Positions 5,066 through 61,641 of a stretch of 64,000 bases of DNA are shown one piece after another. The notes under the pieces were generated by a model that saw only the letters and a list, made by a program, of their open reading frames with translations, searched no databases and was not told the DNA's origin. Numbering within the stretch: position 1 is the first letter of the stretch; every line of letters starts with the position of its first letter. Source of the stretch: an uncultured Acetatifactor sp. Lineage in GTDB: Bacteria; Bacillota; Clostridia; Lachnospirales; Lachnospiraceae. The stretch is from positions 1 through 64,000 of the forward strand of contig CANRIP010000006.1 in the NCBI GenBank assembly GCA_947630715.1. The letters are read 5' to 3'. Both the position numbers and the translations under genes were made by a program.

Positions 5066-6754
5066 ATGTCTATGATCAATGATGCGTTCCATATGGTGTA
5101 CCGATATTTGCTGCCCCGGACCGGGCCATCCCGGGGCCGGCGGCTTTGGGAGGCGCTTCAGTCTCTTGCCCAGGACGAGATTTTGTCCTGCTCTGAAACG
5201 GAAACCGCCCGTCCTCTTACTTACCGGGAAACGCAGGATATCCTGGCGAGACTGAACGAGAGGGAGTCGGTTCGAAAATCCCGGGGCGTGTATTACACGC
5301 CGGCGGATACGGTGGAATTTATTGTGCAAAACAGTTGTCGGCTCCTGGCCGGCAAATCCGGACAGGAGGCCGGCAAAGAGGGGGACGGATCCGGCGGGGG
5401 GACAGGCTCCGCCCAGGCATGTTCGGCTCCGAACCGGCTGGCAGCCTGGAGAAAACAATTCTGCGGGCAGAAGACGGTTTTTGACCCCACCTGCGGGGCG
5501 GGGGAATTCCTTTTGTGCATTCTGGAAGAAAAATTCAACCTGTGGGACCGGGGGGCCAGGCGGGTCACAAAGGCGGCCATAGAGAAAATCACGGGCACTC
5601 TGTACGGCAATGACATCAATCAGGAATCCGTCGCCATTGCGAAACTTAGGCTGTTTCTGTGCGCGGCCAATCGGTACGGGTTTGAAAAATGCCGGGATCT
5701 GCCGTCCGTGTTAAACAACCGGTTTACCCACTGCAATTATGTGGAAAATCCCCCGGCGGGAAACGGCGGTTTTGACCTGATTGTGGGGAATCCTCCTTAT
5801 GTGGAGGACTCCAAAAGCGGCCTGCATCCGGCCAGGCGGTATGGAAATATTTACGCCAATGTGCTGGTGAACGCCGCCGGCAGCTTAAAAAAGGGCGGCG
5901 TGATGGGGTTCGTGGTGCCCCTGTCCTATGTGTCCACCCCGAGGATGAAGGCGCTGCGGGAGGATTTGTACCGTCTTACGCCGACCCAGTATATTCTCAG
6001 TTATTCGGACCGGCCGGACTGTCTGTTCGTATCGGTGCATCAGAAACTGTGTATTCTGTTTGGACAGAAACACAAGGGCCCCGGACGGATTTACACAGGA
6101 AACTATCAGTACTGGTACAGGGAGGAGAGGGCAAAGCTTTTTTCCGGGTTCGGCACTGTGGAAAACCGGCATGTGCGGGACGGCTATATCCCCAAGATCG
6201 GGACGCCCACGGATGCGCGGCTGTACGTCAAGGCCACCGCCGGCAGACGCAAAATGCCTTTTATCGCCATGACGACCCGGGAGGGAGAGGCGGTGTACCT
6301 GAATATGAGAGCGGCCTTTTGGATCAAGGCCTTCCGAAACGTCCACGAAGGGGCCGAATACCGGGCGTTTTACTTTGACAGCGGGGACAGGGCGGATTAT
6401 GCCATGTGTCTGCTGAATTCCTCCCTGTTCTGGTGGTATTGGATCTGCGTTTCCGACTGCTGGCATATTACGGGGAAGGAACTGTCCGGCTTTATGGTCC
6501 CTCAAAACTGGGACAGGGAGCGGGTCCGCCTGTTGGCTGGGGAGCTGGAGGAAAGTCTGGAGCGCACCAGGGAATATGTGGGAACCGTCCAGACCGAGTA
6601 TGAATATAAACACCGGCTCTGTCTGCCCCAGATTACCAACATCGACGATTACATCAACGGATTGTACGGGCTGACCGGGCAGGAGAGCGCGTATGTAAAA
6701 AACTTCGCCCGGACGTACCGGGTGAGCGGAGGAGCGGCGAATGAGGGCGATTGA
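5066..6754 (+). CDS. N6-adenine DNA methyltransferase (Eco57I/TaqI-like class)
   Basis: GVYYTPADTVEFIV; SAM-binding FDPTCGAGEFLL; catalytic FDLIVGNPPYVED. Confidence 0.88.
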   Translation: MSMINDAFHMVYRYLLPRTGPSRGRRLWEALQSLAQDEILSCSETETARPLTYRETQDILARLNERESVRKSRGVYYTPADTVEFIVQNSCRLLAGKSGQEAGKEGDGSGGGTGSAQACSAPNRLAAWRKQFCGQKTVFDPTCGAGEFLLCILEEKFNLWDRGARRVTKAAIEKITGTLYGNDINQESVAIAKLRLFLCAANRYGFEKCRDLPSVLNNRFTHCNYVENPPAGNGGFDLIVGNPPYVEDSKSGLHPARRYGNIYANVLVNAAGSLKKGGVMGFVVPLSYVSTPRMKALREDLYRLTPTQYILSYSDRPDCLFVSVHQKLCILFGQKHKGPGRIYTGNYQYWYREERAKLFSGFGTVENRHVRDGYIPKIGTPTDARLYVKATAGRRKMPFIAMTTREGEAVYLNMRAAFWIKAFRNVHEGAEYRAFYFDSGDRADYAMCLLNSSLFWWYWICVSDCWHITGKELSGFMVPQNWDRERVRLLAGELEESLERTREYVGTVQTEYEYKHRLCLPQITNIDDYINGLYGLTGQESAYVKNFARTYRVSGGAANEGD

Positions 6755-7838
6755 CCTTTTTTCCGGCTGCGGAGGCTTGTCCCTGGGCTTTCTGCAGAAC
6801 GGATATGAGATCGAAAAGGCGGTGGAGGCGGTGCCGTCCATCGCCCGCACCTATCAAATGAATTTTCCCGACACCCAGGTGATCGTACAGGATATCACGC
6901 AGATCGATCAATCCGGCATGTTTCAGGAGGGGGACGCGGACGTGATCATCGGCGGGCCGCCCTGTCAGGGCTTTTCCATGGCCGGAGCCCGCATCCGGGA
7001 GGGTTTCCTGGGGGATCCCCGCAATTACCTGTTCAAGCATTATTTCAATGTGGTAAAAACCGTCAAGCCCCGGGTCTTTGTGATGGAGAACGTCAGAGGG
7101 ATCATGACCATGCAGAAGGGAGAAATCTTTGAAGAAATCAAACGGATTTTTTCCGATCCTATCCTGCTGGACGGCCGGGGGTACAGGCTGTATTACCGGG
7201 TGGTCAATGCGGCGGACTTCGGGGTGCCTCAGAAACGGGAGAGGGTGATCCTGATCGGGACCTTCAATGAGCGGGCGGATTTTGACAGGCTCTGGAATGA
7301 GACAAAAGAGGAAATCCGCAGGGAATGTCCCGGCTTTTTTGACCCTGTAACCGTCAGGGACGCCATCGGCAATATGACTTCCCCCACTCAGGACGGAGAC
7401 GTCCGGGGGCTGGAGCCGGCAAGCCCGTACCAGCGTTATCTTTCGTCCCCCGACGGAACCACGAAAAACCATGTGATGACCAGGCATTCCGGTGTGGCGG
7501 TAGGCAGGATGAGCCGGGTGCGGGAGGGGGAGAATTTTACCGCCCTAAAGGAACGGATCCATTCCGTACACAGCGGCTCTTACGGGCGTCTTTGCTGGGA
7601 CGAGCCGGCGGCGACGATCACTACCAGGTTTGACACGCCGTCGGGGGGGAGATTTACCCACCCTTCCCAGGACAGGACTCTTACCCCCAGGGAAGCCGCC
7701 AGGCTTCAGAGCTTTCCGGACAGCTTTTTCTTCTCCGGGAACAAGACTTCCGTGTGTAAACAGATTGGAAACGCCGTGCCGCCCAAGGTTGCTTTTTTTC
7801 TGGCAAGGTTTGCCGGGCATCTGCTGGAGGAATTATGA
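6741..7838 (+). CDS. DNA (cytosine-5)-methyltransferase
   Basis: DLFSGCGGLSLGF (motif I), GGPPCQGFSMAG (motif IV), MENVRGI (motif VI), QIGNAVPP (motif X). Confidence 0.95.
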   Translation: MRAIDLFSGCGGLSLGFLQNGYEIEKAVEAVPSIARTYQMNFPDTQVIVQDITQIDQSGMFQEGDADVIIGGPPCQGFSMAGARIREGFLGDPRNYLFKHYFNVVKTVKPRVFVMENVRGIMTMQKGEIFEEIKRIFSDPILLDGRGYRLYYRVVNAADFGVPQKRERVILIGTFNERADFDRLWNETKEEIRRECPGFFDPVTVRDAIGNMTSPTQDGDVRGLEPASPYQRYLSSPDGTTKNHVMTRHSGVAVGRMSRVREGENFTALKERIHSVHSGSYGRLCWDEPAATITTRFDTPSGGRFTHPSQDRTLTPREAARLQSFPDSFFFSGNKTSVCKQIGNAVPPKVAFFLARFAGHLLEEL

Positions 7839-10786
7839 AAAATCTGTTGATCCGGGGAGGCCCCGGAACGGGGAAAACCGTGTCTGCCAGAGCCATCCCT
7901 TATTATGTGGGATGTCTTGGCTGTCAGGCGGAGGAAGTGTTTGAAAAGGAAATCGGCAGGGAGTTTCCGGCCATCGAAGGGTTTGTGCAAAGCGAATTTG
8001 TGGAGTTTATCCAGGTGCATCCCTCCATGACCTATGAGGACGTGGTCTACGGGATTGAGGTTTCCGCTCAAAACGGTTTGACGGCCGCCTATGCGGAAAA
8101 AAGAATCAAAAGCCTCTGCGACAGGGCGTTGCAAAACGGGGAAAAGAAGTATTTTGTGATTCTGGACGATATCGGCAGAACCAACGGAAGCGCCCTGCTC
8201 GGCAATCTGCTGTACGCCATGGAGTACCGGGGGCAGCCGGTGGAACTGGTGGACGGTCAGACGCTTACGGTTCCGGAAAATGTGGTTTTGATTGTAACCC
8301 AGTGCGGGTCTGTTTCCGGGGAACCCATGGAATACGCGCTGCGGAGGCGGTTCGACTATGAGAAGGAGCTGTTTCCCAGCGAAAGGATCCTGGAAAGGCA
8401 TTACAGGGGGCATTTGTCTCCGGGCGCCGGCGAGGCGGTGCTTCGGGCATTTCGCGATGTGATGGATTTTACGGCCGGCCATCTTTGGCAGGAGGGGAAG
8501 GAGCATCCCCAGGACTGGCTGCCCGGCCACGGGATGCTGATGGTGGATCCCAGAGGGAACGAGGGTTTTCTGGTAACAGGCATTCAGCAGAAGTTTACCT
8601 ATCAGTTGTATCCGTATCTGAAGGCTTTGGCGGCGGCGGGGATCCTGCGGGCGGAGCGCGGCGAGCTGGAGGCCCTGTATTTTCATGTGACGGAGCTGCT
8701 AAATGGGGGAGAGCAGAAGGCTGCCGCCGTGGAGGTGGAAAAAATCTTCTGCCGGCGCAAGACCCCGGCGCCATATTTTACCATGGAAGATGCCGGGCGG
8801 TATTATCAGGAAGTGATTGTGCCGGGGCAGTGCAGGGAACACAGAACCATGATAGAGATCATCGCCGACGTGATTCTGCTCAATGGAATCCTGCCGGTAC
8901 AGAAAGCCCTTTCGGATGTGTTTCTGAACACGAATCTGGTGCGGTTTGAAAGCCGGAACACCCCGGGAGTCTGCGCGGCGTTTTTTGCGGAGGAAAGACA
9001 GACCGGGGAATTCGGGTATCTGACCACCGTTTCCCGTTATCCCCGTTCCTATTATTCCACCAACCCGTGCAGGACGGGGCGGTGGAAGGATGCCAAAGAC
9101 GCCCCCGGGTATCTGGTCCGGTATCCGGACGGGGAGACGGTGACCTATGTTCTCCTGAACGCTTTCCGGGACGCGGGCTTTGAGCCTTCCGGCCCCGTGA
9201 TCCACGCCGAGGAAAATACCGCCTCCATCTACTGCGCCCTGTATGATCTGGTCAAGGGGTATCTGGACGCCTGCGAGAGAGGCGCCGCCGGGATGGCGGC
9301 ATCGGATCCCGCCTGGGAGGATATGCACCGTCTGATTTTGCTGGATCGGTGGTACTGGCAGAAAAAGCATGAGGAATTAAAGGGACAGCCGTCCGTGGAA
9401 AGAACCCGCCTGTTGGGAGAGGCTGTGCTGCATCTGCAAAGTCTGTGGCATCGGGCGGGGGAGACGGTGAGCGTGGACGAAAAGGGGTTCCTGGAGATGG
9501 CAGCGGTTCTCCTGGAGAGGGAAGATCAGGTTTCGCTTGTTTGGGATCCTCAGATATCCTCCGGCGCATATGAACGTTTGTTCCGGCCCGGGGCGGCGCA
9601 GAAAACAATCGAGATAAAAGGAGTTGACAGTATGGTGGATTTAAAGGATTATCAGAAGATCATGGAACATATGGGTGTGCGTCAGATGATCTTTCAGGGT
9701 CCGCCCGGCACGTCCAAAACCTTTGAGAGCAAGAAATTTATCTTAAAGCAGCTAAACCCTCAGTCCCCGGTTTTGGCCCGGCCGAATCCCACCCAGGAGG
9801 AAATTTCCCGGGAGCTTGCGCCTTTTAAGCTGGGCCAGAGCGATTATGAGAATCCGGAAGGATCCGCTAAGCTTGCGACGGGAGGCTGGGATCTGGTGCA
9901 GTTCCATCCCTCTTACGGCTATGAGGATTTCATCCGGGGGATCGAAGTGAAAGCCCAGGCCGGCATGCCGGTGTACCAAACGGTCAACAGGATCTTGGGG
10001 AAACTGGCGGAATTTGCCGCCCTGGCTCTTAAGAGGGCTCCGGGGGAGGCGGCGCCCCGCTTTTATCTGATGATCGACGAGATCAACCGGGCGAATCTGG
10101 CCACGGTATTCGGCGAACTGATTTACGGCCTGGAGTACCGAAACAGCAGGGTATCCACGCCATATGAGGTCTATGACCGGGCCCAGGGAGGCGTCAGCAG
10201 GGATATTTTACTGGGGAATAACCTGTACCTGATCGGCACCATGAATACGGCGGATAAATCCATCGATTCCATTGATTACGCCATACGGCGGAGATTCCTG
10301 TTCATCGACAGCCCTGCGGACAGGAACGTGATTTTATCCAGTTGCCGGAGCGCGTCAGGCTCCCAGGGAGAGCATTTCATCGAGCTTCTGCTCTTTGACG
10401 GCGTGGGTGAGCTGTTTGAAAACCCTGATTTTTTCAATGAGGAATATCAAAGCGGGGACGTCAGGGTCGGCCACACTTATTTTCTGCGGGAGCGGCAGGA
10501 AAATTACAGGGAAATCATCACGGAACGTCTGATTTTCCAGGTGATTCCCATCCTGCGGGAGTATGTAAAGGACGGCATTCTGTATGCGGACGCCGATCTT
10601 CGGCAGAGACAGCACAGCGTGTCGGAAATCGCGGACGCGCCGGAGAGGGAACGGATTTCCCTGGTGGGAGAGAATATCCTGGTTTTTGTCAGGCACTTTG
10701 GGGAGCGGGACAAAGAGGGAACGGTGATCGATAACGGATATCTGGCGGAATTTGTGGAGGAACTCTGCGAAAGGCTGGGATATTGA
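7835..10786 (+). CDS. McrB-like AAA protein with two AAA modules (983 aa)
   Basis: Module 1: GGPGTGKT and VILDDIGRTN. Module 2: GPPGTSKT, MIDEINRANLATVFGELIYGLEYR and GTMNTADKSIDSIDYAIRRRF (McrB signature). 4-bp ATGA overlap with the upstream MTase. Confidence 0.88.
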   Translation: MKNLLIRGGPGTGKTVSARAIPYYVGCLGCQAEEVFEKEIGREFPAIEGFVQSEFVEFIQVHPSMTYEDVVYGIEVSAQNGLTAAYAEKRIKSLCDRALQNGEKKYFVILDDIGRTNGSALLGNLLYAMEYRGQPVELVDGQTLTVPENVVLIVTQCGSVSGEPMEYALRRRFDYEKELFPSERILERHYRGHLSPGAGEAVLRAFRDVMDFTAGHLWQEGKEHPQDWLPGHGMLMVDPRGNEGFLVTGIQQKFTYQLYPYLKALAAAGILRAERGELEALYFHVTELLNGGEQKAAAVEVEKIFCRRKTPAPYFTMEDAGRYYQEVIVPGQCREHRTMIEIIADVILLNGILPVQKALSDVFLNTNLVRFESRNTPGVCAAFFAEERQTGEFGYLTTVSRYPRSYYSTNPCRTGRWKDAKDAPGYLVRYPDGETVTYVLLNAFRDAGFEPSGPVIHAEENTASIYCALYDLVKGYLDACERGAAGMAASDPAWEDMHRLILLDRWYWQKKHEELKGQPSVERTRLLGEAVLHLQSLWHRAGETVSVDEKGFLEMAAVLLEREDQVSLVWDPQISSGAYERLFRPGAAQKTIEIKGVDSMVDLKDYQKIMEHMGVRQMIFQGPPGTSKTFESKKFILKQLNPQSPVLARPNPTQEEISRELAPFKLGQSDYENPEGSAKLATGGWDLVQFHPSYGYEDFIRGIEVKAQAGMPVYQTVNRILGKLAEFAALALKRAPGEAAPRFYLMIDEINRANLATVFGELIYGLEYRNSRVSTPYEVYDRAQGGVSRDILLGNNLYLIGTMNTADKSIDSIDYAIRRRFLFIDSPADRNVILSSCRSASGSQGEHFIELLLFDGVGELFENPDFFNEEYQSGDVRVGHTYFLRERQENYREIITERLIFQVIPILREYVKDGILYADADLRQRQHSVSEIADAPERERISLVGENILVFVRHFGERDKEGTVIDNGYLAEFVEELCERLGY

Positions 10787-10807: not shown

Positions 10808-12178
10808 ATGGCTGGCAGGATTGTATCCTATGGGATGGAGGACTGGACAAGGCTGGAAGGGGAGGCCCTGGAGGGCGTATCCGGTATTGAGCTTTCGGAC
10901 AGCCGGAATTTCGGAATTCACTTTTATAACGGATCCCTTTGCACCGGCGGGTATGTGGGCGTGGGCCGGCTGTATGGCAGAAACGGACGTCCTCTTGTGA
11001 CGGGGGGCCGGGAGCATGTGGCGGTGATCAGGCCGCGGCTGGCGGCGGATCCCTGGGGCATGCTGGAGAAGGTGATGACGGACGCGGAGTATGACAGTTA
11101 CTGCGCGGAGATGGAAAGGAACGGAAAGTATCTGTTTCGGATCTATTATGACCAGCCTGTGATCCGTCTGCCCGCGGACCGGGAGTGCGGGGACGATATT
11201 CTGTACGCGCTGAGTTTTATCAATCAGTGTTACTCCCTGTGCCAGAGGGGACTGAAAAAGAGGATGCTGGGCCGGGAGGAAAATCTGAATGCCAAGATCC
11301 GGGGGAAGGTGGACATCCGGTAGAATATCCGGGTCAACACCTTCCGGGGACGAAACGACAGGTTCTGTTGCAGATACATGGATTTTACGGCGGACACCTG
11401 GGAAAACCGGATCCTGAAGGCGGCGCTTCTGCGGTGCGAAAAAATGCTGATCCGCAGGTTTGCGCTGCAAAGCGGGATTATGAAACGGCTGGCCTACTGT
11501 AAGCATCTGTTCCGCAGCGTCGGGGATACCACCGTCGGAGAGCGGGATTTTAAGAGGGCCAACGCCACGGGGCTGTATCTGTATTATAAGCCCCTGCTCC
11601 AGCAGGCGAAGGGGATCCTCAGGCGGAATTACCATGCCGGCGCCGCCGGGGAGGAAAGGGACGCGGCACCCTGTGTGTACCTGATTCCCTACATGATCAA
11701 CATGGAGACGGTTTTTGAGTTTTATGTGCGGACGCTGGTTCGGGAGAGCCTGGATCCGGAACGTTTTGTGCTGGAGAAATATGGGGAGCGGATTTTCACC
11801 CGAAAGGGAGGGGAAGATCCGGAGCGGGTTCGGCAGGGAGCCCATTTAAGCCCTTTTGTGATTCCGGATCTTCTGATCAGGGACCGGCATACCGGGAAAC
11901 CGGCGCTGGTGATGGACGCCAAATATAAACCTCCGGGACGGCCGGACAGGGAGGACACGCATCAGTTGCTTTCCTATGTGCTGCTCACGGGAGCGCCCTT
12001 TTGCGGCTTTGCGTTTCCGGGAAGACGGACGCCTGACGGAGACCGGGGCGGGGATCCGTTTTCGGAGCTGAATTCGCCCCTGGGGCCCTTCCGGTACTGC
12101 GAGTGGTTTCTGGGGGAGGAACCGGATCTTCCCTGGTTCGGCCGGCTGCCGGAAAGGGAAGAAAAAAGGGAATCGTGA
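10808..12178 (+). pseudogene. McrC-like nuclease subunit interrupted by one in-frame TAG at 11321-11323 (possible pseudogene, readthrough or split gene)
   Basis: ORFs 10808-11323 and 11378-12178 share a frame; conceptual readthrough GKVDIR*NIRVNTFRGRNDRFCCRYMDFTADTWENRILKAALL is continuous McrC. PD-(D/E)xK-like residues (IPDLLIRD...LVMDAKYK) lie in the second half. Confidence 0.85.
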
Positions 12179-55605: not shown

Positions 55606-56967
55606 GTGTGGAAAATGAACAGGCGGACGGAAAGAGACGTTAGGATCAAGCGGCAGGCGGGACAGGAAATGGTCGTTTTGCTGGAGAACTGGAAAAAGCG
55701 CGCGAGACGTATGAAGATATACCGGTTCTGCCTGTGCCTGACGCTTTTTTTCTGCTGCACGGCGTTGACCGCAACGTTGTATTACAGAATTGACAGCAGT
55801 ATTCCCTCGGTGCTGAATATCCGGGCGGACACAGAGCAGTCTTTCTGCCTGGGGGTGCCGGCGGAGGCTGAGATTGTCAGCGTCAGTGAAAGCGGGGAAA
55901 GCAATATCCCGGCGGGATCGGTGCAGATCGATTTAAGCAGGCCCGTCACCTTAAAGACCGCGCAGGAATCCAGTTACAGGATGCTGGTGAAACTGTTCGG
56001 TTTTCTGCCTTTTAAAGAGGTGGATATCCAGGTGATCGAGGATCAGGAGCTGATTCCCGTGGGAGCGCCCATCGGCATTTACGTCAAGACGGACGGCGTG
56101 TTGGTGGTGGGAACCGGGGAATTTCAGGGACTGGACGGCGTCTCCTATTCCCCCTGCCGGTTTGTGCTGAAATCCGGGGATTATATCCGGCGGGTGGACG
56201 GCCAGGATGTGACGGAAAAGGAAGCTTTTATCCAGTGTGTGGAACAAAGCGGCGGCAGGCAGATGAAACTGACGCTGGAGCGGAACGGCGAAACCATGGA
56301 TGTGAGCGTGACGCCGGTGAAGGATGCGGCAGGGGTGTACAAGCTGGGGGTATGGGTCAGGGATAACGCGCAGGGCGTGGGAACCATGACCTATATCGAC
56401 CCCGATGGCAATTTCGGGGCGCTGGGCCACGGGATCAACGACATTGACACCAGCACGTTGATGCATATGGAAAACGGGACGCTGTATCACACGGATATTG
56501 TGGACATCAAGAAGGGAACGGATGGAAATCCCGGAGAAATGACGGGAATGATTGTGTATTCAAAGGACAATATCCTGGGGACCATCACCAGCAACAGCAG
56601 CAAGGGGATCTTTGGCGTGTGCAATGAAAGCGCCTTACAGCTTGGGGTGCAGGAGCCCCTTCCCATCGGGCTGAAACAGGAGATTGTCAAAGGGCCGGCC
56701 CAGATTCTGTGCACGGTGGAGGACGAGGCCGCCTATTACGATGTGGAAATCACGGCGGTACATCTGGATCATGACAATGTGAACAGAGGCATTGAGCTGA
56801 AAGTCACGGATCCCAGGCTGCTGGAGGTCACCGGCGGCATTGTCCAGGGCATGAGCGGCAGCCCCATCATTCAAAACGGGAAGATCATTGGGGCCGTCAC
56901 CCATGTACTGGTGCAGGACAGCGCCAGAGGATACGGGATCTTCATTGAAACCATGCTGGAGCATTGA
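55606..56967 (+). CDS. spoIVB: SpoIVB peptidase (S55 family)
   Basis: ALGHGINDIDT (catalytic His) and GIVQGMSGSPIIQNGKIIGAVTHVLV (catalytic Ser). Confidence 0.96.
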   Translation: MWKMNRRTERDVRIKRQAGQEMVVLLENWKKRARRMKIYRFCLCLTLFFCCTALTATLYYRIDSSIPSVLNIRADTEQSFCLGVPAEAEIVSVSESGESNIPAGSVQIDLSRPVTLKTAQESSYRMLVKLFGFLPFKEVDIQVIEDQELIPVGAPIGIYVKTDGVLVVGTGEFQGLDGVSYSPCRFVLKSGDYIRRVDGQDVTEKEAFIQCVEQSGGRQMKLTLERNGETMDVSVTPVKDAAGVYKLGVWVRDNAQGVGTMTYIDPDGNFGALGHGINDIDTSTLMHMENGTLYHTDIVDIKKGTDGNPGEMTGMIVYSKDNILGTITSNSSKGIFGVCNESALQLGVQEPLPIGLKQEIVKGPAQILCTVEDEAAYYDVEITAVHLDHDNVNRGIELKVTDPRLLEVTGGIVQGMSGSPIIQNGKIIGAVTHVLVQDSARGYGIFIETMLEH

Positions 56968-57011
56968 ACCATGACACCGGAAGAAATTGCGGATTGTGTT
57001 TCTGCATGAAA

Positions 57012-57041
57012 AATCCTCGGTTGAGTCCGGGGATTTTTTTT
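57012..57041 (+). terminator. Intrinsic terminator after spoIVB
   Basis: AATCCTCGG-TTGAGT-CCGGGGATT merging into an 8-T run. Confidence 0.9.
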
Positions 57042-57110
57042 GGCAAAAAACAAATTTCTATGAATAAATTCAAATAAATAGGAAAATATGAGAAAAAAAC
57101 TCAAATATTG

Positions 57111-57138
57111 TTTACAAAATTGAAAAATGGTATATAAT
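57111..57138 (+). promoter_or_regulatory. Promoter TTTACA-16 bp-TATAAT for the AAA/RloB pair
   Basis: -35 at 57111-57116, -10 at 57133-57138. Confidence 0.7.
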
Positions 57139-57151
57139 ATACAAGTATCAA

Positions 57152-58393
57152 GTGGAGGTTGATGATATGCTAAGTCAATTTACTGTTAAAAACTACAAAA
57201 GTATCCGTGATGAGATTACATTTGACATGCAGGCAGCAGCTATTTCGGAGCATAACGATAAAATTATTCAAGATGGGAATGGGGAATTGTTTCTGCCCGT
57301 AGCGGTTATCTATGGGCCGAACGGTGGCGGAAAGTCTAATGTACTGGAAGCAATTTATACATTGGCATCTAAAATTTTGCGTCCTCTTTGCGCAACCTGC
57401 GATAAAAGCGACTGCGCATACAAGGCCAGAAAAATTCCTGTGGAACCATTTGCTTTTACGGAAGAAAATAGAAACATGCCTACAAAGTTTGAAATTTTCT
57501 TTCGGACGCAAGTAGCAGAGTATCGTTATATTCTTCATATTCAGAGAGAAACCGTGATTTATGAAAGCCTTGATAGAGTGAAAATGGAAACGGGAAGGCG
57601 CTCTGCATTGTTTGTCCGTGAAAAAGACAAAATAGATTTGAAAGGCACATTTGTCAAATTTAAGATTAGTGAAGACTTGTCGGAAACTTTGCCCTTATTG
57701 TCATATCTTGGGATTACTTATAAAAAGAACGAAATAGTGAATGACGTGCTGAGTTGGTTTGAAGAATCCATAGACTTTTTAAATTATGGAAATCCTTATC
57801 AGGAAATGAAAACAGCAATAGCAAAATCTGATAAAATCAAAGAATTAGTGTTGAAAATGATCCGGGAAATGGACTTGGATATTGAAGATTTTCGTGTGGA
57901 AGAAAAGGACGAGGATACGGTAGAGGTGTATACAAAACATATTGTGAATGGAGAGAGTACAGAACTTACGTTATCCGAGGAGTCCAGCGGAACAAAAAAG
58001 CTATTTGGACTTTTGCCGTATATTGTGCATAGCCTGATCTGCGGAACGACGTTGGTCATTGACGAACTGGACGCAAAAATTCATCCCTTATTATTGAAAC
58101 ACATGATTGAACTGTATACGGACATGAATGTAAATAAGGCAAAGGGGCAGTTGATTTTTACCTCCCATGATTTATCAACCATGAACAATGAGGTTTATCG
58201 AAGGGACGAAATTTGGTTTGTGGCAAAGGGAAGGGATCAAAACACCAAGTTATATTCATTGGTAGAGTTTAAGGATGACAATGGTGTGTCAGTCCGCAAG
58301 GATGCAAAATATGATAAACAGTATCTTGAGGGGAAATATGGCGCGGATCCGTATCTGCAAAGGATTATAGATTGGGGGACAGTCAATGCCTAA
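57152..58393 (+). CDS. AAA-family ATPase, AbiLi/RloA-like (defence)
   Basis: FTVKNYKSIRDEITFDM; IYGPNGGGKSNVLEAI; LSEESSGTKKLFGLLPYI; TLVIDELDAKIHPLL; LIFTSHDLSTMNN. Start may be 57167 (MLSQFTVKNYK). Confidence 0.9.
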   Translation: MEVDDMLSQFTVKNYKSIRDEITFDMQAAAISEHNDKIIQDGNGELFLPVAVIYGPNGGGKSNVLEAIYTLASKILRPLCATCDKSDCAYKARKIPVEPFAFTEENRNMPTKFEIFFRTQVAEYRYILHIQRETVIYESLDRVKMETGRRSALFVREKDKIDLKGTFVKFKISEDLSETLPLLSYLGITYKKNEIVNDVLSWFEESIDFLNYGNPYQEMKTAIAKSDKIKELVLKMIREMDLDIEDFRVEEKDEDTVEVYTKHIVNGESTELTLSEESSGTKKLFGLLPYIVHSLICGTTLVIDELDAKIHPLLLKHMIELYTDMNVNKAKGQLIFTSHDLSTMNNEVYRRDEIWFVAKGRDQNTKLYSLVEFKDDNGVSVRKDAKYDKQYLEGKYGADPYLQRIIDWGTVNA

Positions 58394-59102
58394 AAAAGCC
58401 GGTATGGAAAAGTGGAAGAAAGAGCGTCGGAAACACTATTTGGAACTCAAAGAATATCGCTACTACATCTTTTGTGAGGGGGAGCAAACAGAGCCGCAGT
58501 ATTTTGCAGGATTTAAACGGCTGATTGAGGACAACCCTATCTACAAAGATATGGTATTGATTGAGATTGAGCCTTGTGCAGCAGAAACCATGCGCGTCAT
58601 AGGAATGGCGGAAAGATATGTCAAAGAGAATAACATACAAAAGGGTCAAATCTGGTGTGTGTATGATAAGGACAGTTTTCCGGCAGAGCATTTCAATGGT
58701 GTTGTGGAACGAGCGGACTTGTTAAATCAGGATAACTCAGAATTACAATATCATGCAGCGTGGAGTAATGAGTGCATTGAGTTCTGGTTTATACTGCATT
58801 TTGCTTATTATACCGCTAACAACCACCGGACAGCGTACATAAATTTTTTAAACCATAAGTTTCAGGAACTGGGATTAGGGAAGTATCAGAAGAATATGCC
58901 GAATCTTTTTGAAATATTAATGGAAAAAGGTAATCCAAAGCTGGCAATACGATACGCCAAGCGGGCTATCAAAGATGGACGAGGTAAAACGCCAACGGAA
59001 ATTGCGCCGGGGACAAAGGTGTATGAGCTGGTGGAGGAACTGGCGAAGTATTTGCCGGAAGAAATAAGAAACTGTTTTTGCCAGGAACGTGCGCAATTTT
59101 GA
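58386..59102 (+). CDS. RloB/AbiLii-like protein with TOPRIM-like acidic motifs
   Basis: YYIFCEGEQTEPQYFAGFK (Glu) and IWCVYDKDSFPAEHF (DxD-like); AAWSNECIEFWFILHF; overlaps the ATPase gene by 8 bp. Confidence 0.88.
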   Translation: MPKKAGMEKWKKERRKHYLELKEYRYYIFCEGEQTEPQYFAGFKRLIEDNPIYKDMVLIEIEPCAAETMRVIGMAERYVKENNIQKGQIWCVYDKDSFPAEHFNGVVERADLLNQDNSELQYHAAWSNECIEFWFILHFAYYTANNHRTAYINFLNHKFQELGLGKYQKNMPNLFEILMEKGNPKLAIRYAKRAIKDGRGKTPTEIAPGTKVYELVEELAKYLPEEIRNCFCQERAQF

Positions 59103-59231
59103 CAAAATTGCCAAAATCCGCACGTTAGACTTGCAAGCAACTTACCCAATATGATAAAATATGGCTAACCAAGTAGGCGTGATACTTGTACTGAGCGGCT
59201 TATTACAGTTGTATGGTAAGGAGGCAGGAAT

Positions 59232-59591
59232 ATGGCTAAATTAACATCAAAGCAACTGCTATGGATCAGAAACATTGTGATGTTTGCCGGGGTTCTTATG
59301 GCTTTTGTTGTATGGCTGCATGTTCCTTCTACTTTAAAAAATAACCGCCTATACCATATTGGAAATGGAGAGTATACTTTTAAGGAACCTTTTCTTATTT
59401 TCATACTCATGCCTTTACTTGGGCTTATTCCAAGAAAACCGATCGATGAAATCCATACGGATGATATGACAGAGAGAAATAAGATAAAAGAAGAAATAGA
59501 AATAACGTCAAAAAAGACACAAATTATCTGCACTGTAATCGGAACGCTATTAGCATGCGTTATCTTTTTGTTGATGGTGCTGATTGGATAG
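59232..59591 (+). CDS. Small membrane protein of unknown function
   Basis: Three probable TM segments; follows the AAA/RloB pair in the same AT-rich segment. Confidence 0.6.
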   Translation: MAKLTSKQLLWIRNIVMFAGVLMAFVVWLHVPSTLKNNRLYHIGNGEYTFKEPFLIFILMPLLGLIPRKPIDEIHTDDMTERNKIKEEIEITSKKTQIICTVIGTLLACVIFLLMVLIG

Positions 59592-59608
59592 TTTCAGAAA
59601 AAGGAAAG

Positions 59609-59650
59609 AGAGAGTACTGTAAACCCCGCAGCGGCGCTGTACTCTCTTTT
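59609..59650. terminator. Probable intrinsic terminator at the end of the AT-rich segment
   Basis: AGAGAGTAC...GTACTCTCTTTT, 9-bp stem with a GC-rich loop and short T-tract. Confidence 0.65.
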
Positions 59651-59808
59651 ACCTCTCTTTTCCATAAGCATCGCAAGCGCCCAATGGGTTCTTTCCACTT
59701 TCTGCCACCCCATCAAGCCATTTTCCCGTTCCCGATTGTTTTTGGCCGCATCCATGTATGTCTTTTAGTTCCTTCCCAATGATCTGACAGAGTGGGTTTC
59801 TGACGTCC

Positions 59809-61641
59809 TTATTTGCGCATGGCAGCCCGTTTCCTCAGGGTGGGATCCAGAATTTTCTTGCGGATGCGCAGGCTCCCTGGGGTCACCTCCAGCAGCTCGT
59901 CCGTATCGATAAAATCAAGGGCCTGTTCCAGAGAGAGCAGCTTGGGAGGCGTCAGGCGCAGCGCTTCGTCCGCGCTGGAGGAACGGGTGTTGGTCAACTG
60001 TTTTTTCCGGCAGACGTTGACCTCTATGTCTTCGCTTCGCCCGGTCTGCCCTACAACCATGCCGGCATACACCTTTTCCCCGGGGCCGATGAACAAAATG
60101 CCGCGCTCCTGAGCGTTGAACAGGCCGTAGGTGATGGCCTCCCCCGCCTCAAAGGCGATGAGGGAGCCCTGTTTTCGGTACTGAATGTCTCCCTTGAAGG
60201 GGGAATAGCCGTCAAACACCGTGTTCATGACGCCGGTTCCCCTGGTATCGGTCAAAAATTCACCCCGGTAGCCGATCAGCCCCCGGGCGGGGATGGAAAA
60301 TTCCAGCCGGGTTCCGGTTCCGCCGGAGATGGATCCCATATTCAAAAGCTCTCCCTTTCTCTGTCCCAGCTTTTCAATCACCACGCCGGAATACTCGCTG
60401 GGGACGTCGATATAGCAAAGCTCCATGGGCTCCGTTCGTCTGCCGTTCTCATCCGTATGGTACAGCACCTCCGCCTTGCTGACGGCAAACTCATATCCCT
60501 CTCTGCGCATGCTTTCGATCAAAACGGACAGATGCAGCTCCCCCCGGCCCGAGACTTTGAAACACTCTGTGGAATCCGTTTCCTCCACCCGGAGGGACAC
60601 GTCGGTATTCAGCTCCCGGAACAGCCTGTCCCGGATGTGGCGGCTGGTTACATACTTGCCCTCCTGGCCCGCCAGAGGGGAATCGTTGACCATAAACTGC
60701 ATGGCGATAGTAGGCTCGCTGATCTTCTGAAAAGGAATGGGTTTCGGGCATTCGGGGGAGCAGAGAGTGTCGCCGATGTGGATATCGCTGATGCCGGCGA
60801 TGGCAACGATGGAGCCAATATCCGCCTGCTTGACCTCTGTTTTTCCCAGGCCGTCAAATTCATAGAGTCGGCTTACCTTGACCCGGGTCTGTTTGCCGGG
60901 CTCATGGTGATTGCAGATCACCACTTCCTGGTTGACGCGGATCTGCCCGTTATCCACCTTTCCCACGCCGATGCGCCCTACATACTCGTTGTAATCGATG
61001 GTGCTGATCAGCACCTGGGTGCCGGCGTCCGGATCCCCCTCGGGGGCCGGAATATAGTTTAAGATGGTTTCAAACAGCGGTTCCATGCTGACGCCGGGTT
61101 TCTCCATGTCAAGGGAGGCTACGCCGGTTCTGGCGGAGGCGAACACGAAGGGGCAGTCCAGTTGGGAATCGTCGGCGTCCAGTTCCAGAAACAGATCCAG
61201 CACCTCGTCCACAACCTCGCCGGGCCTTGCCTCCGGCCGGTCGATTTTATTGATACATACGATGACGGGCAGCTTAAGCTCCAGCGCCTTGCGGAGAACG
61301 AATTTGGTCTGGGGCATGGCGCCTTCAAAGGCGTCCACCACCAGGATCACGCCGTTTACCATTTTGAGAACGCGCTCCACCTCTCCGCCGAAATCCGCGT
61401 GGCCGGGCGTGTCAATGATATTAATCTTGGTATTTTTATAAGTGACGGCGGTATTTTTGGACAGGATCGTGATGCCCCGCTCCCGTTCGATATCGCCGGA
61501 GTCCATGACCCGTTCGGCCACCTCCTGGCCCTCGCGGAACACGCCGCTTTGCTTTAACAGCTCGTCCACCAGAGTGGTTTTGCCGTGGTCTACATGGGCT
61601 ATGATGGCCACATTCCGCACATCTTCTCTTTTTTGTCTCAT
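59809..61641 (-). CDS. typA: Translational GTPase TypA/BipA
   Basis: EDVRNVAIIAHVDHGKTTLVDELLKQSGVF; GRGELHLSVLIESMRREGYE. Start at MRQKREDVRN. Confidence 0.97.
   Translation of the reverse strand: MRQKREDVRNVAIIAHVDHGKTTLVDELLKQSGVFREGQEVAERVMDSGDIERERGITILSKNTAVTYKNTKINIIDTPGHADFGGEVERVLKMVNGVILVVDAFEGAMPQTKFVLRKALELKLPVIVCINKIDRPEARPGEVVDEVLDLFLELDADDSQLDCPFVFASARTGVASLDMEKPGVSMEPLFETILNYIPAPEGDPDAGTQVLISTIDYNEYVGRIGVGKVDNGQIRVNQEVVICNHHEPGKQTRVKVSRLYEFDGLGKTEVKQADIGSIVAIAGISDIHIGDTLCSPECPKPIPFQKISEPTIAMQFMVNDSPLAGQEGKYVTSRHIRDRLFRELNTDVSLRVEETDSTECFKVSGRGELHLSVLIESMRREGYEFAVSKAEVLYHTDENGRRTEPMELCYIDVPSEYSGVVIEKLGQRKGELLNMGSISGGTGTRLEFSIPARGLIGYRGEFLTDTRGTGVMNTVFDGYSPFKGDIQYRKQGSLIAFEAGEAITYGLFNAQERGILFIGPGEKVYAGMVVGQTGRSEDIEVNVCRKKQLTNTRSSSADEALRLTPPKLLSLEQALDFIDTDELLEVTPGSLRIRKKILDPTLRKRAAMRK

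What the first reader, a model, noticed from the sequence alone, without database searches (positions are those of the whole stretch)
7835..10786. Double-barrelled McrB: two AAA modules in one polypeptide, the first degenerate
Module 2 has McrB hallmarks (MIDEINRAN, MNTADKSIDSIDYAIRRRF). Module 1 keeps Walker A (GGPGTGKT) but has VILDDIGRTN instead of xDEINR and IVTQCGS where MNTADRS is expected, suggesting nucleotide binding without normal GTP hydrolysis. Ordinary McrB is a single-AAA hexamer, so a tandem fusion implies an unusual ring (for example pseudo-hexamer of three double subunits) or an internal regulatory module. A ~350-aa middle region links the two.
Basis: partly seen in the sequence, partly recalled or inferred. 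Interest (0 to 1): 0.7.

Follow-up and report, generated by a model that had tools for sequence, protein, structure and literature searches.

The report
Double-barrelled McrB restriction protein
A gut-type bacterium's DNA-cutting defence operon carries a motor protein with two engine modules in one chain, the first apparently unable to burn fuel, and the gene also seems to make the working engine on its own from a hidden second start; it is a conserved, rare variant of a known restriction system, and in this strain its nuclease gene is broken by a stop codon.

Summary
Window 7835-10786 is one 983-aa ORF with two McrB-type AAA+ modules, 27% identical to each other. The first has lost the Walker-B glutamate and the McrB NxxD loop but keeps Walker A and the trans arginines. 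It is not an oddity of one genome: 14 further full-length homologues (46-55% identity) were found, in a conserved operon (m6A methyltransferase, m5C methyltransferase, double McrB, McrC). A distant phage/prophage branch keeps the layout with two m5C methyltransferases. Module 1 is under strong purifying selection and had a single old origin. Best reading: an LlaJI-like, methyltransferase-paired McrBC restriction-modification system with a pseudo-GTPase module. Ring geometry is undetermined; a pseudo-hexamer of three double subunits is only one option. New variant of a known kind.

The parts
5066..6754 (+). N6-adenine DNA methyltransferase (Eco57I/N6_Mtase type), first gene of the operon; motifs DPTCGAGEF and GNPPY intact
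   Evidence: Pfam Eco57I 3.8e-14, N6_Mtase 2.7e-9; motifs; same gene order in relatives
6741..7838 (+). C5-cytosine DNA methyltransferase (Dcm type); motifs I, PCQ, ENV, GNAVPP intact; overlaps the neighbours on both sides
   Evidence: Pfam DNA_methylase 1.9e-72; motifs
7835..10786 (+). double-AAA McrB-like protein, 983 aa; start overlaps the stop of the m5C methyltransferase gene
7835..8683 (+). module 1 (res 1-283): McrB-type AAA+ plus lid, Walker A kept, Walker B DD, no NxxD, trans arginines kept
   Evidence: purifying selection
7856..7879 (+). module 1 Walker A GGPGTGKT
   Evidence: conserved as GxxxTGKT in 14/14
8156..8173 (+). module 1 Walker B VILDDI (Glu replaced by Asp)
   Evidence: DD in 14/14 and in the phage branch
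8291..8311 (+). module 1 loop IVTQCGS in place of MNxxDRS
8339..8353 (+). module 1 LRRRF, trans-acting arginines retained
   Evidence: RRR[FM] in 14/14
8684..9619 (+). middle domain (res 284-595), mixed beta and long helical hairpin, no known relative; with the module 1 lid the least conserved part
   Evidence: AF2 pLDDT 85, pTM 0.87; no fold or sequence match; 37-39% mean identity
9616..9623 (+). internal Shine-Dalgarno AAAAGGAG, 8 nt before an in-frame ATG
9632..10786 (+). module 2 (res 600-983), complete McrB GTPase module; predicted also to be translated alone as a 384-aa short form from ATG 9632
10808..11323 (+). 5' part of mcrC, ended by an in-frame TAG at 11321-11323 (codon 172)
11324..12178 (+). 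rest of mcrC in the same frame, with PD...DAK nuclease motif at 11864-11923; not made unless the stop is read through
   Evidence: Pfam McrBC 5.9e-20; relatives have Lys or Asn at the stop position

Best explanation
It is the motor subunit of a methyltransferase-paired McrBC restriction-modification system, related in plan to LlaJI. Shown by sequence: a four-gene operon (m6A MTase, m5C MTase, double McrB, McrC); two McrB AAA+ modules of which only module 2 has the full GTPase machinery; a constrained internal ribosome-binding site and start in front of module 2. Inferred: the gene makes two proteins, full length (module 1 + middle domain + module 2) and a short form (module 2 alone). Module 2 forms the GTP-hydrolysing ring that docks McrC. 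Module 1 binds nucleotide but hydrolyses it poorly or not at all and cannot be stimulated by McrC; it serves as a structural or regulatory AAA+ unit, most likely a second tier stacked on the module-2 ring, less likely a fixed dead site within the same ring. The middle domain is the best candidate for reading the DNA target that the two methyltransferases protect. In this genome restriction is probably off, because mcrC stops before its nuclease.
For: Operon order is the same in every relative whose contig covers it, except that L031 lacks the m5C gene. Module 1 lacks the equivalents of TgMcrB Glu357, Asn410 and Asp413, and in most members Asn359, which place the catalytic water and answer to McrC, but keeps the Arg425/426 equivalents. 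Module 1 dN/dS is 0.03-0.04, like module 2. Module 1 sequences form one group (94/94) and module 2 sequences another (99/95); an exclusive m1+m2 group is rejected (AU p 0.007), so the tandem is old. Internal start: ATG in 14/14 with mean SD energy -9.5 (worst -8.8); next-best conserved ATG -6.3. Between residues 538 and 605 the only invariant residues in 12 sequences are G596, V597, M600, i.e. GGAGT (GGGGT in one) - 7 nt - ATG. Codons 589-596 show 0/72 synonymous differences among five close homologues against a gene mean of 48%, the lowest window of the gene. The phage branch keeps GGAAGGAG, the same 8-nt gap and a GTG start. E. coli McrBS is made by internal initiation (PMC12707154, PMC12602166). 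LlaJI shows that MTase-paired McrBC-like enzymes restrict unmodified DNA (PMC1459862).
Against: No experiment. Internal initiation is comparative only; a codon-randomisation test given the peptide alone was not significant (126 of 2000, p about 0.06), because the peptide KGV itself spells a fair SD. DNA binding by the middle domain is untested and no known DNA-binding fold was found. Walker-B Asp and degenerate loops do not prove loss of hydrolysis: the degenerate McrB-family protein PcdA is reported to possess NTPase activity (PMC10602043). L031 lacks the m5C gene, so that MTase is not strictly needed. Nothing here decides stacked rings against one mixed ring. The AF2 full-length model is weak (pTM 0.43) and says nothing on assembly.
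Confidence: 0.6

Rival explanations
1. Same-ring model, a form of the first reader's idea: both modules of a chain sit side by side in one ring, filled up with short module-2 subunits, so that module 1 supplies a fixed dead site and a working arginine finger and imposes the asymmetry that McrC needs.
For: Trans arginines of module 1 are kept in 14/14 while its own catalytic residues are gone. McrBC works through an asymmetric hexamer with McrC at one site (PMC7680126). The predicted short form could fill the ring.
Against: Type II tandem AAA+ chains (p97, NSF, ClpB, Pex1/6) stack as two rings (PMC5447069). A 310-aa ordered domain sits between the modules. One arginine is lost in the phage copy L082. 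No assembly prediction could be run.
Confidence: 0.3
2. A modification-dependent (Type IV) McrBC that happens to lie beside two methyltransferase genes; the middle domain reads modified bases.
For: McrB and McrC homology; the best-studied McrBC enzymes are Type IV.
Against: Gene order and overlaps are conserved with the MTases in nearly all relatives and, with two different m5C MTases, in the phage branch. A Type IV enzyme specific for the marks of its own operon would attack its own genome.
Confidence: 0.12
3. Module 1 is a decaying remnant of a duplicated module and the fused ORF has no special mechanism.
For: Loss of catalytic motifs; McrC nonsense in the window; McrB nonsense in L035 and L082.
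Against: dN/dS 0.03-0.04 in module 1, the same motifs retained across 46-55% identical homologues, one clade.
Confidence: 0.05
4. The internal SD-like stretch is coding coincidence: the KGV-xx-M peptide is kept for protein reasons and no short form exists.
For: Peptide-conditioned codon test p about 0.06.
Against: Synonymous-rate minimum of the gene exactly there; the residue before G varies K/E/R while the purine-rich SD stays; the start changes from ATG to GTG in the phage branch with the same spacing.
Confidence: 0.15

Closest known systems
LlaJI restriction-modification system (R1/R2.LlaJI with two m5C MTases)
   Same: Four co-directional genes: two MTases, then a McrB-like GTPase subunit and a McrC-like nuclease; a separate N-terminal part precedes the GTPase module in the McrB-like chain (PMC1459862)
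   Different: R1.LlaJI is 585 aa with one GTPase module and, per PMC12707154, a B3 DNA-binding domain; here 983 aa, two AAA modules, no B3 match found, one m6A and one m5C MTase (two m5C in the phage branch)
E. coli McrBC with McrBL/McrBS
   Same: McrB GTPase and McrC; a short McrB made by internal initiation and lacking the N-terminal part (PMC12707154, PMC12602166)
   Different: E. coli McrB has one AAA module and a modified-base reader; no MTase partner; here the part missing from the short form holds a second AAA module plus a middle domain
LlaI and BsuMI three-ORF restriction cassettes
   Same: Contain a stand-alone McrB-like subunit of 337-343 aa (PMC1459862), close in size to the predicted 384-aa short form
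   Different: There the subunit is its own gene; here it is nested in a double-module gene. Homology of the remaining ORFs was not tested
Type II (tandem) AAA+ proteins such as Pex1/Pex6
   Same: Two AAA modules in one chain, first module expected to bind but not hydrolyse nucleotide (PMC5447069)
   Different: ATPases of other AAA+ clades; likeness of plan only, not membership
Actinobacterial plasmid cassettes: MT-A70 MTase, single-AAA McrB-like protein, unannotated gene in the McrC position (L105-L107)
   Same: MTase-linked McrB-type module on mobile DNA, 33-36% identical to module 2
   Different: one AAA module in a protein of about 550-610 aa, one m6A-type MTase
Adjacent separate mcrB pairs (L103 of genome G811; L074)
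   Same: two McrB-type modules per operon; the L103 genes are the nearest relatives of module 2 in the tree
   Different: two separate genes; in L103 both have intact GTPase motifs and no MTase gene was seen beside them

Membership tests
McrB family (McrBC GTPase subunit) | AAA+ core with McrB-type sequence | tested here: met
   Both modules match PRK11331 and AAA_5; the profile hits solved McrBs 6ut3, 6hz4, 7vsr over module 2
McrB family (McrBC GTPase subunit) | MNxxDRS signature replacing sensor I, and Walker-B DE: module 2 | tested here: met
   MNTADKS and DEINR in 14/14
McrB family (McrBC GTPase subunit) | MNxxDRS signature replacing sensor I, and Walker-B DE: module 1 | tested here: not met
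   DD and no NxxD in 14/14; module 1 is a McrB-derived pseudo-GTPase module, not a canonical one
McrB family (McrBC GTPase subunit) | GTP preference and McrC-stimulated hydrolysis | not testable with these tools
   needs biochemistry
McrBC system | adjacent McrC with PD-(D/E)xK nuclease | tested here: met
   Met in relatives; in the window the gene is present but stopped by TAG before the motif
LlaJI-like MTase-paired McrBC R-M system | two DNA MTases in one operon with McrB-like and McrC-like genes | tested here: met
   L031 has only one MTase
LlaJI-like MTase-paired McrBC R-M system | B3-type DNA-binding domain in R1 | tested here: not met
   middle domain has no match in Pfam, PDB or viral fold libraries; so it is filed as like LlaJI in plan, not as an LlaJI member
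LlaJI-like MTase-paired McrBC R-M system | restricts unmodified sites protected by its MTases | not testable with these tools
   needs plaque assays with and without MTases
McrBL/McrBS dual-product mcrB genes | internal ribosome-binding site and start before the GTPase module | tested here: met
   sequence and synonymous constraint; the protein itself is not shown
CoCoNuT systems | NxD variant of the signature and long coiled coils fused to McrB | tested here: not met
   module 2 has NxxD (NTAD) and starts almost at its Walker A

The most novel reading that the evidence does not exclude
A restriction motor whose GTPase ring is controlled by a conserved pseudo-GTPase McrB module: one gene makes a double-module reader subunit and a free motor subunit in a set ratio, giving a two-tier or built-in asymmetric McrBC ring, and a previously undescribed DNA-recognition fold lies between the modules.
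Probability: 0.35. Interest if true: 0.75.

Novelty: new variant of a known kind. Interest (0 to 1): 0.52.

Why it matters
How McrB rings use one active site at a time and how McrB variants read DNA are open mechanistic questions. A natural family in which a probably hydrolysis-dead McrB module is kept under strong selection beside an active one, with a nested gene for the active one alone, offers a ready-made system for testing ring asymmetry and the role of short McrB subunits. It also adds a tandem architecture that the papers searched here do not describe, and a middle domain of unknown fold that may be a new DNA reader.

Tried and rejected
Recent fusion or assembly artefact: rejected, since independent genomes give the same fused ORF. 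Module 1 from another AAA clade: rejected. Simple recent self-duplication of module 2: an exclusive m1+m2 group is rejected by the AU test (p 0.007), though long branches are involved. Split version (module 1 and module 2 as separate genes of this family): looked for with a module 1 + middle profile in 391 class genomes and with module 1 seed patterns in the 84,980-species collection; none seen. G811 looked like a second fused tandem but is two adjacent genes. The first genome-contig scan with a single sequence found nothing because its seeds were too specific. Fold searches of the middle domain gave only noise. The full-length PDB fold search returned dynein and McrB; the dynein alignments (rmsd above 30 A) are not meaningful. 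Peptide-conditioned codon randomisation at the internal start was not significant; the synonymous-rate scan was supportive. Paper searches for tandem, double or degenerate McrB found no such description; only openly licensed papers are held, so this is not proof of absence. Homology of the extra BsuMI/LlaI ORFs to module 1 or the middle domain was not tested.
Full report
OBSERVATION. The ORF at 7835-10786 is real, 983 aa, starting inside the end of the preceding m5C methyltransferase gene. Two McrB-type AAA+ modules are detected independently and align to each other over 210 residues (27% identity, E 2e-17). The boundaries need correction: module 1 with its lid is about residues 1-283, the middle region about 284-595, module 2 600-983.

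SURROUNDINGS. Upstream lie an m6A methyltransferase (5066-6754, Eco57I/N6_Mtase) and a Dcm-type m5C methyltransferase (6741-7838), both with intact catalytic motifs. Downstream is mcrC (10808-12178), broken by an in-frame TAG at 11321-11323; the same frame stays open for 284 more codons and holds the McrBC Pfam domain with the PD...DAK nuclease motif. Relatives have Lys or Asn at that position. It is the only McrC found in the assembly, which is 87% complete. Unless the stop is a sequence error or is suppressed, this strain modifies but does not restrict.

RELATIVES. Two full-length homologues were found among 299 genomes of the same family, and a scan of the 84,980-species collection with seeds from module 1 gave 15 loci: 13 with a full-length ORF, L035 with a stop at codon 156, L045 cut by the contig end; one more full-length copy is in a viral contig, L067. 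The order m6A MTase, m5C MTase, double McrB, McrC holds wherever the contig covers it, except that L031 has no m5C gene. No homologue of module 1 without module 2 was seen. A distant branch, a provirus (L068) and Ruminococcus phage NatCom_38182 (L082), has two m5C methyltransferases, a double McrB and McrC; the phage copy of McrB is itself stopped by an in-frame TAA. Other McrBs met in these searches have one AAA module, apart from pairs of adjacent genes (L074, L103).

IS MODULE 1 FUNCTIONAL? Walker A (GxxxTGKT) is kept in 14/14; Walker B is DD in 14/14; the NxxD loop is gone in 14/14; RRR[FM] and PGHG are kept in 14/14. The phage branch shows DD and partial loop loss. In TgMcrB the corresponding Glu357, Asn410 and Asp413 are needed for hydrolysis; Asn359, Asn410 and Asp413 form the network through which McrC stimulates; Arg425/426 act on the neighbouring site (PMC7680126). 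Hence module 1 probably binds nucleotide, does not turn it over normally and does not answer to McrC, but could complete a neighbour's site. This is inference; the degenerate McrB relative PcdA is reported to possess NTPase activity (PMC10602043). Between close homologues dN/dS is 0.03-0.04 in module 1, 0.04-0.12 in the middle and 0.03-0.04 in module 2 (pairs with saturated or near-zero dS left aside), so module 1 is not decaying.

ORIGIN. In a maximum-likelihood tree of 48 AAA domains all module 1 sequences, phage branch included, group together (94/94) and so do all module 2 sequences (99/95). Nearest to module 2 are two adjacent but separate mcrB genes of another genome of the same phylum (L103A/B). 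An exclusive module 1 + module 2 group is rejected (AU p 0.007); the wider group with L103 is in the best tree without strong support (86/77). The tandem thus most likely arose once, before the split of the bacterial and phage branches. A plausible but unproven path is fusion of a neighbouring gene pair with retention of the second gene's ribosome-binding site.

INTERNAL START. In front of module 2 the window reads AAAAGGAG - 8 nt - ATG (9616-9634). The ATG is present in 14/14 and its SD pairing energy averages -9.5 (worst -8.8); the next-best conserved ATG averages -6.3. Between residues 538 and 605 the only invariant residues in 12 sequences are G596, V597 and M600. A codon randomisation that keeps the peptide did not reach significance (p about 0.06), because KGV itself encodes a fair SD. 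A scan of synonymous differences was clearer: among five close homologues codons 589-596 have 0 of 72 synonymous differences against 48% for the gene, the lowest window; among nine divergent ones the eight codons before the start rank 16 of 983. In the phage branch the SD (GGAAGGAG) and spacing are kept and the start is GTG. This is the pattern expected of a nested gene for module 2 alone, as in E. coli McrBS, which when overexpressed withdraws McrC from the active complex (PMC12707154).

MIDDLE DOMAIN. It folds confidently in AF2 (pLDDT 85, pTM 0.87) but matches nothing in Pfam, NCBIfam, PHROGs, PDB sequences, PDB folds or viral folds. It is among the most variable parts (37-39% mean identity against 74% for the module 2 core), and in the phage branch only a helical stretch is faintly recognisable. 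Its place ahead of the GTPase module, where LlaJI R1 and McrB carry their DNA readers, makes it the best candidate for target recognition; this is inference.

MECHANISM. Most likely: the methyltransferases protect a site; the middle domain of the full-length subunit reads it when unmodified; module 2, from full-length and short subunits, forms the GTPase ring that recruits and is stimulated by McrC; module 1 gives a nucleotide-bound scaffold or regulator. For geometry I put stacked tiers somewhat above one mixed ring (type II AAA+ precedent, PMC5447069), with neither shown.

KNOWN OR NEW. Methyltransferase-linked McrBC systems are known (LlaJI, PMC1459862) and the association is widespread (PMC11090510). 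Dual McrB products are known in E. coli. A tandem McrB with a conserved pseudo-GTPase module and nested motor gene was not found in the papers searched. I file it as a new variant of a known kind.

Noticed in passing
window 11321-11323: mcrC is interrupted by an in-frame TAG before the nuclease motif; relatives have Lys or Asn there. Restriction is probably lost while both methyltransferases look intact.
   Followed up: yes
L035 codon 156 of the double McrB; L082 5628-5630: Two further copies of the double McrB are broken by single in-frame stops (TGA, TAA) while the methyltransferase genes just in front of them stay open: repeated loss of restriction with modification kept.
   Followed up: partly
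L031 7316-13286: This copy lacks the m5C methyltransferase: the m6A gene abuts the double McrB directly.
   Followed up: partly
L067, L068, L082: The system also lies on contigs classed as viral or provirus, including an annotated Ruminococcus phage genome.
   Followed up: partly
L103 7089-10547 and L074 7735-11466: Operons with two adjacent separate mcrB genes; in L103 both have intact GTPase motifs and are followed by mcrC. Possible heteromeric McrB rings.
   Followed up: partly
L105, L106, L107: Actinobacterial plasmid cassettes of an MT-A70 methyltransferase, a single McrB-like AAA protein and an unannotated gene in the McrC position.
   Followed up: no
window 56001-60000: G+C drops to 0.43-0.46 against about 0.56 for most of the window; possible foreign insert.
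   Followed up: no
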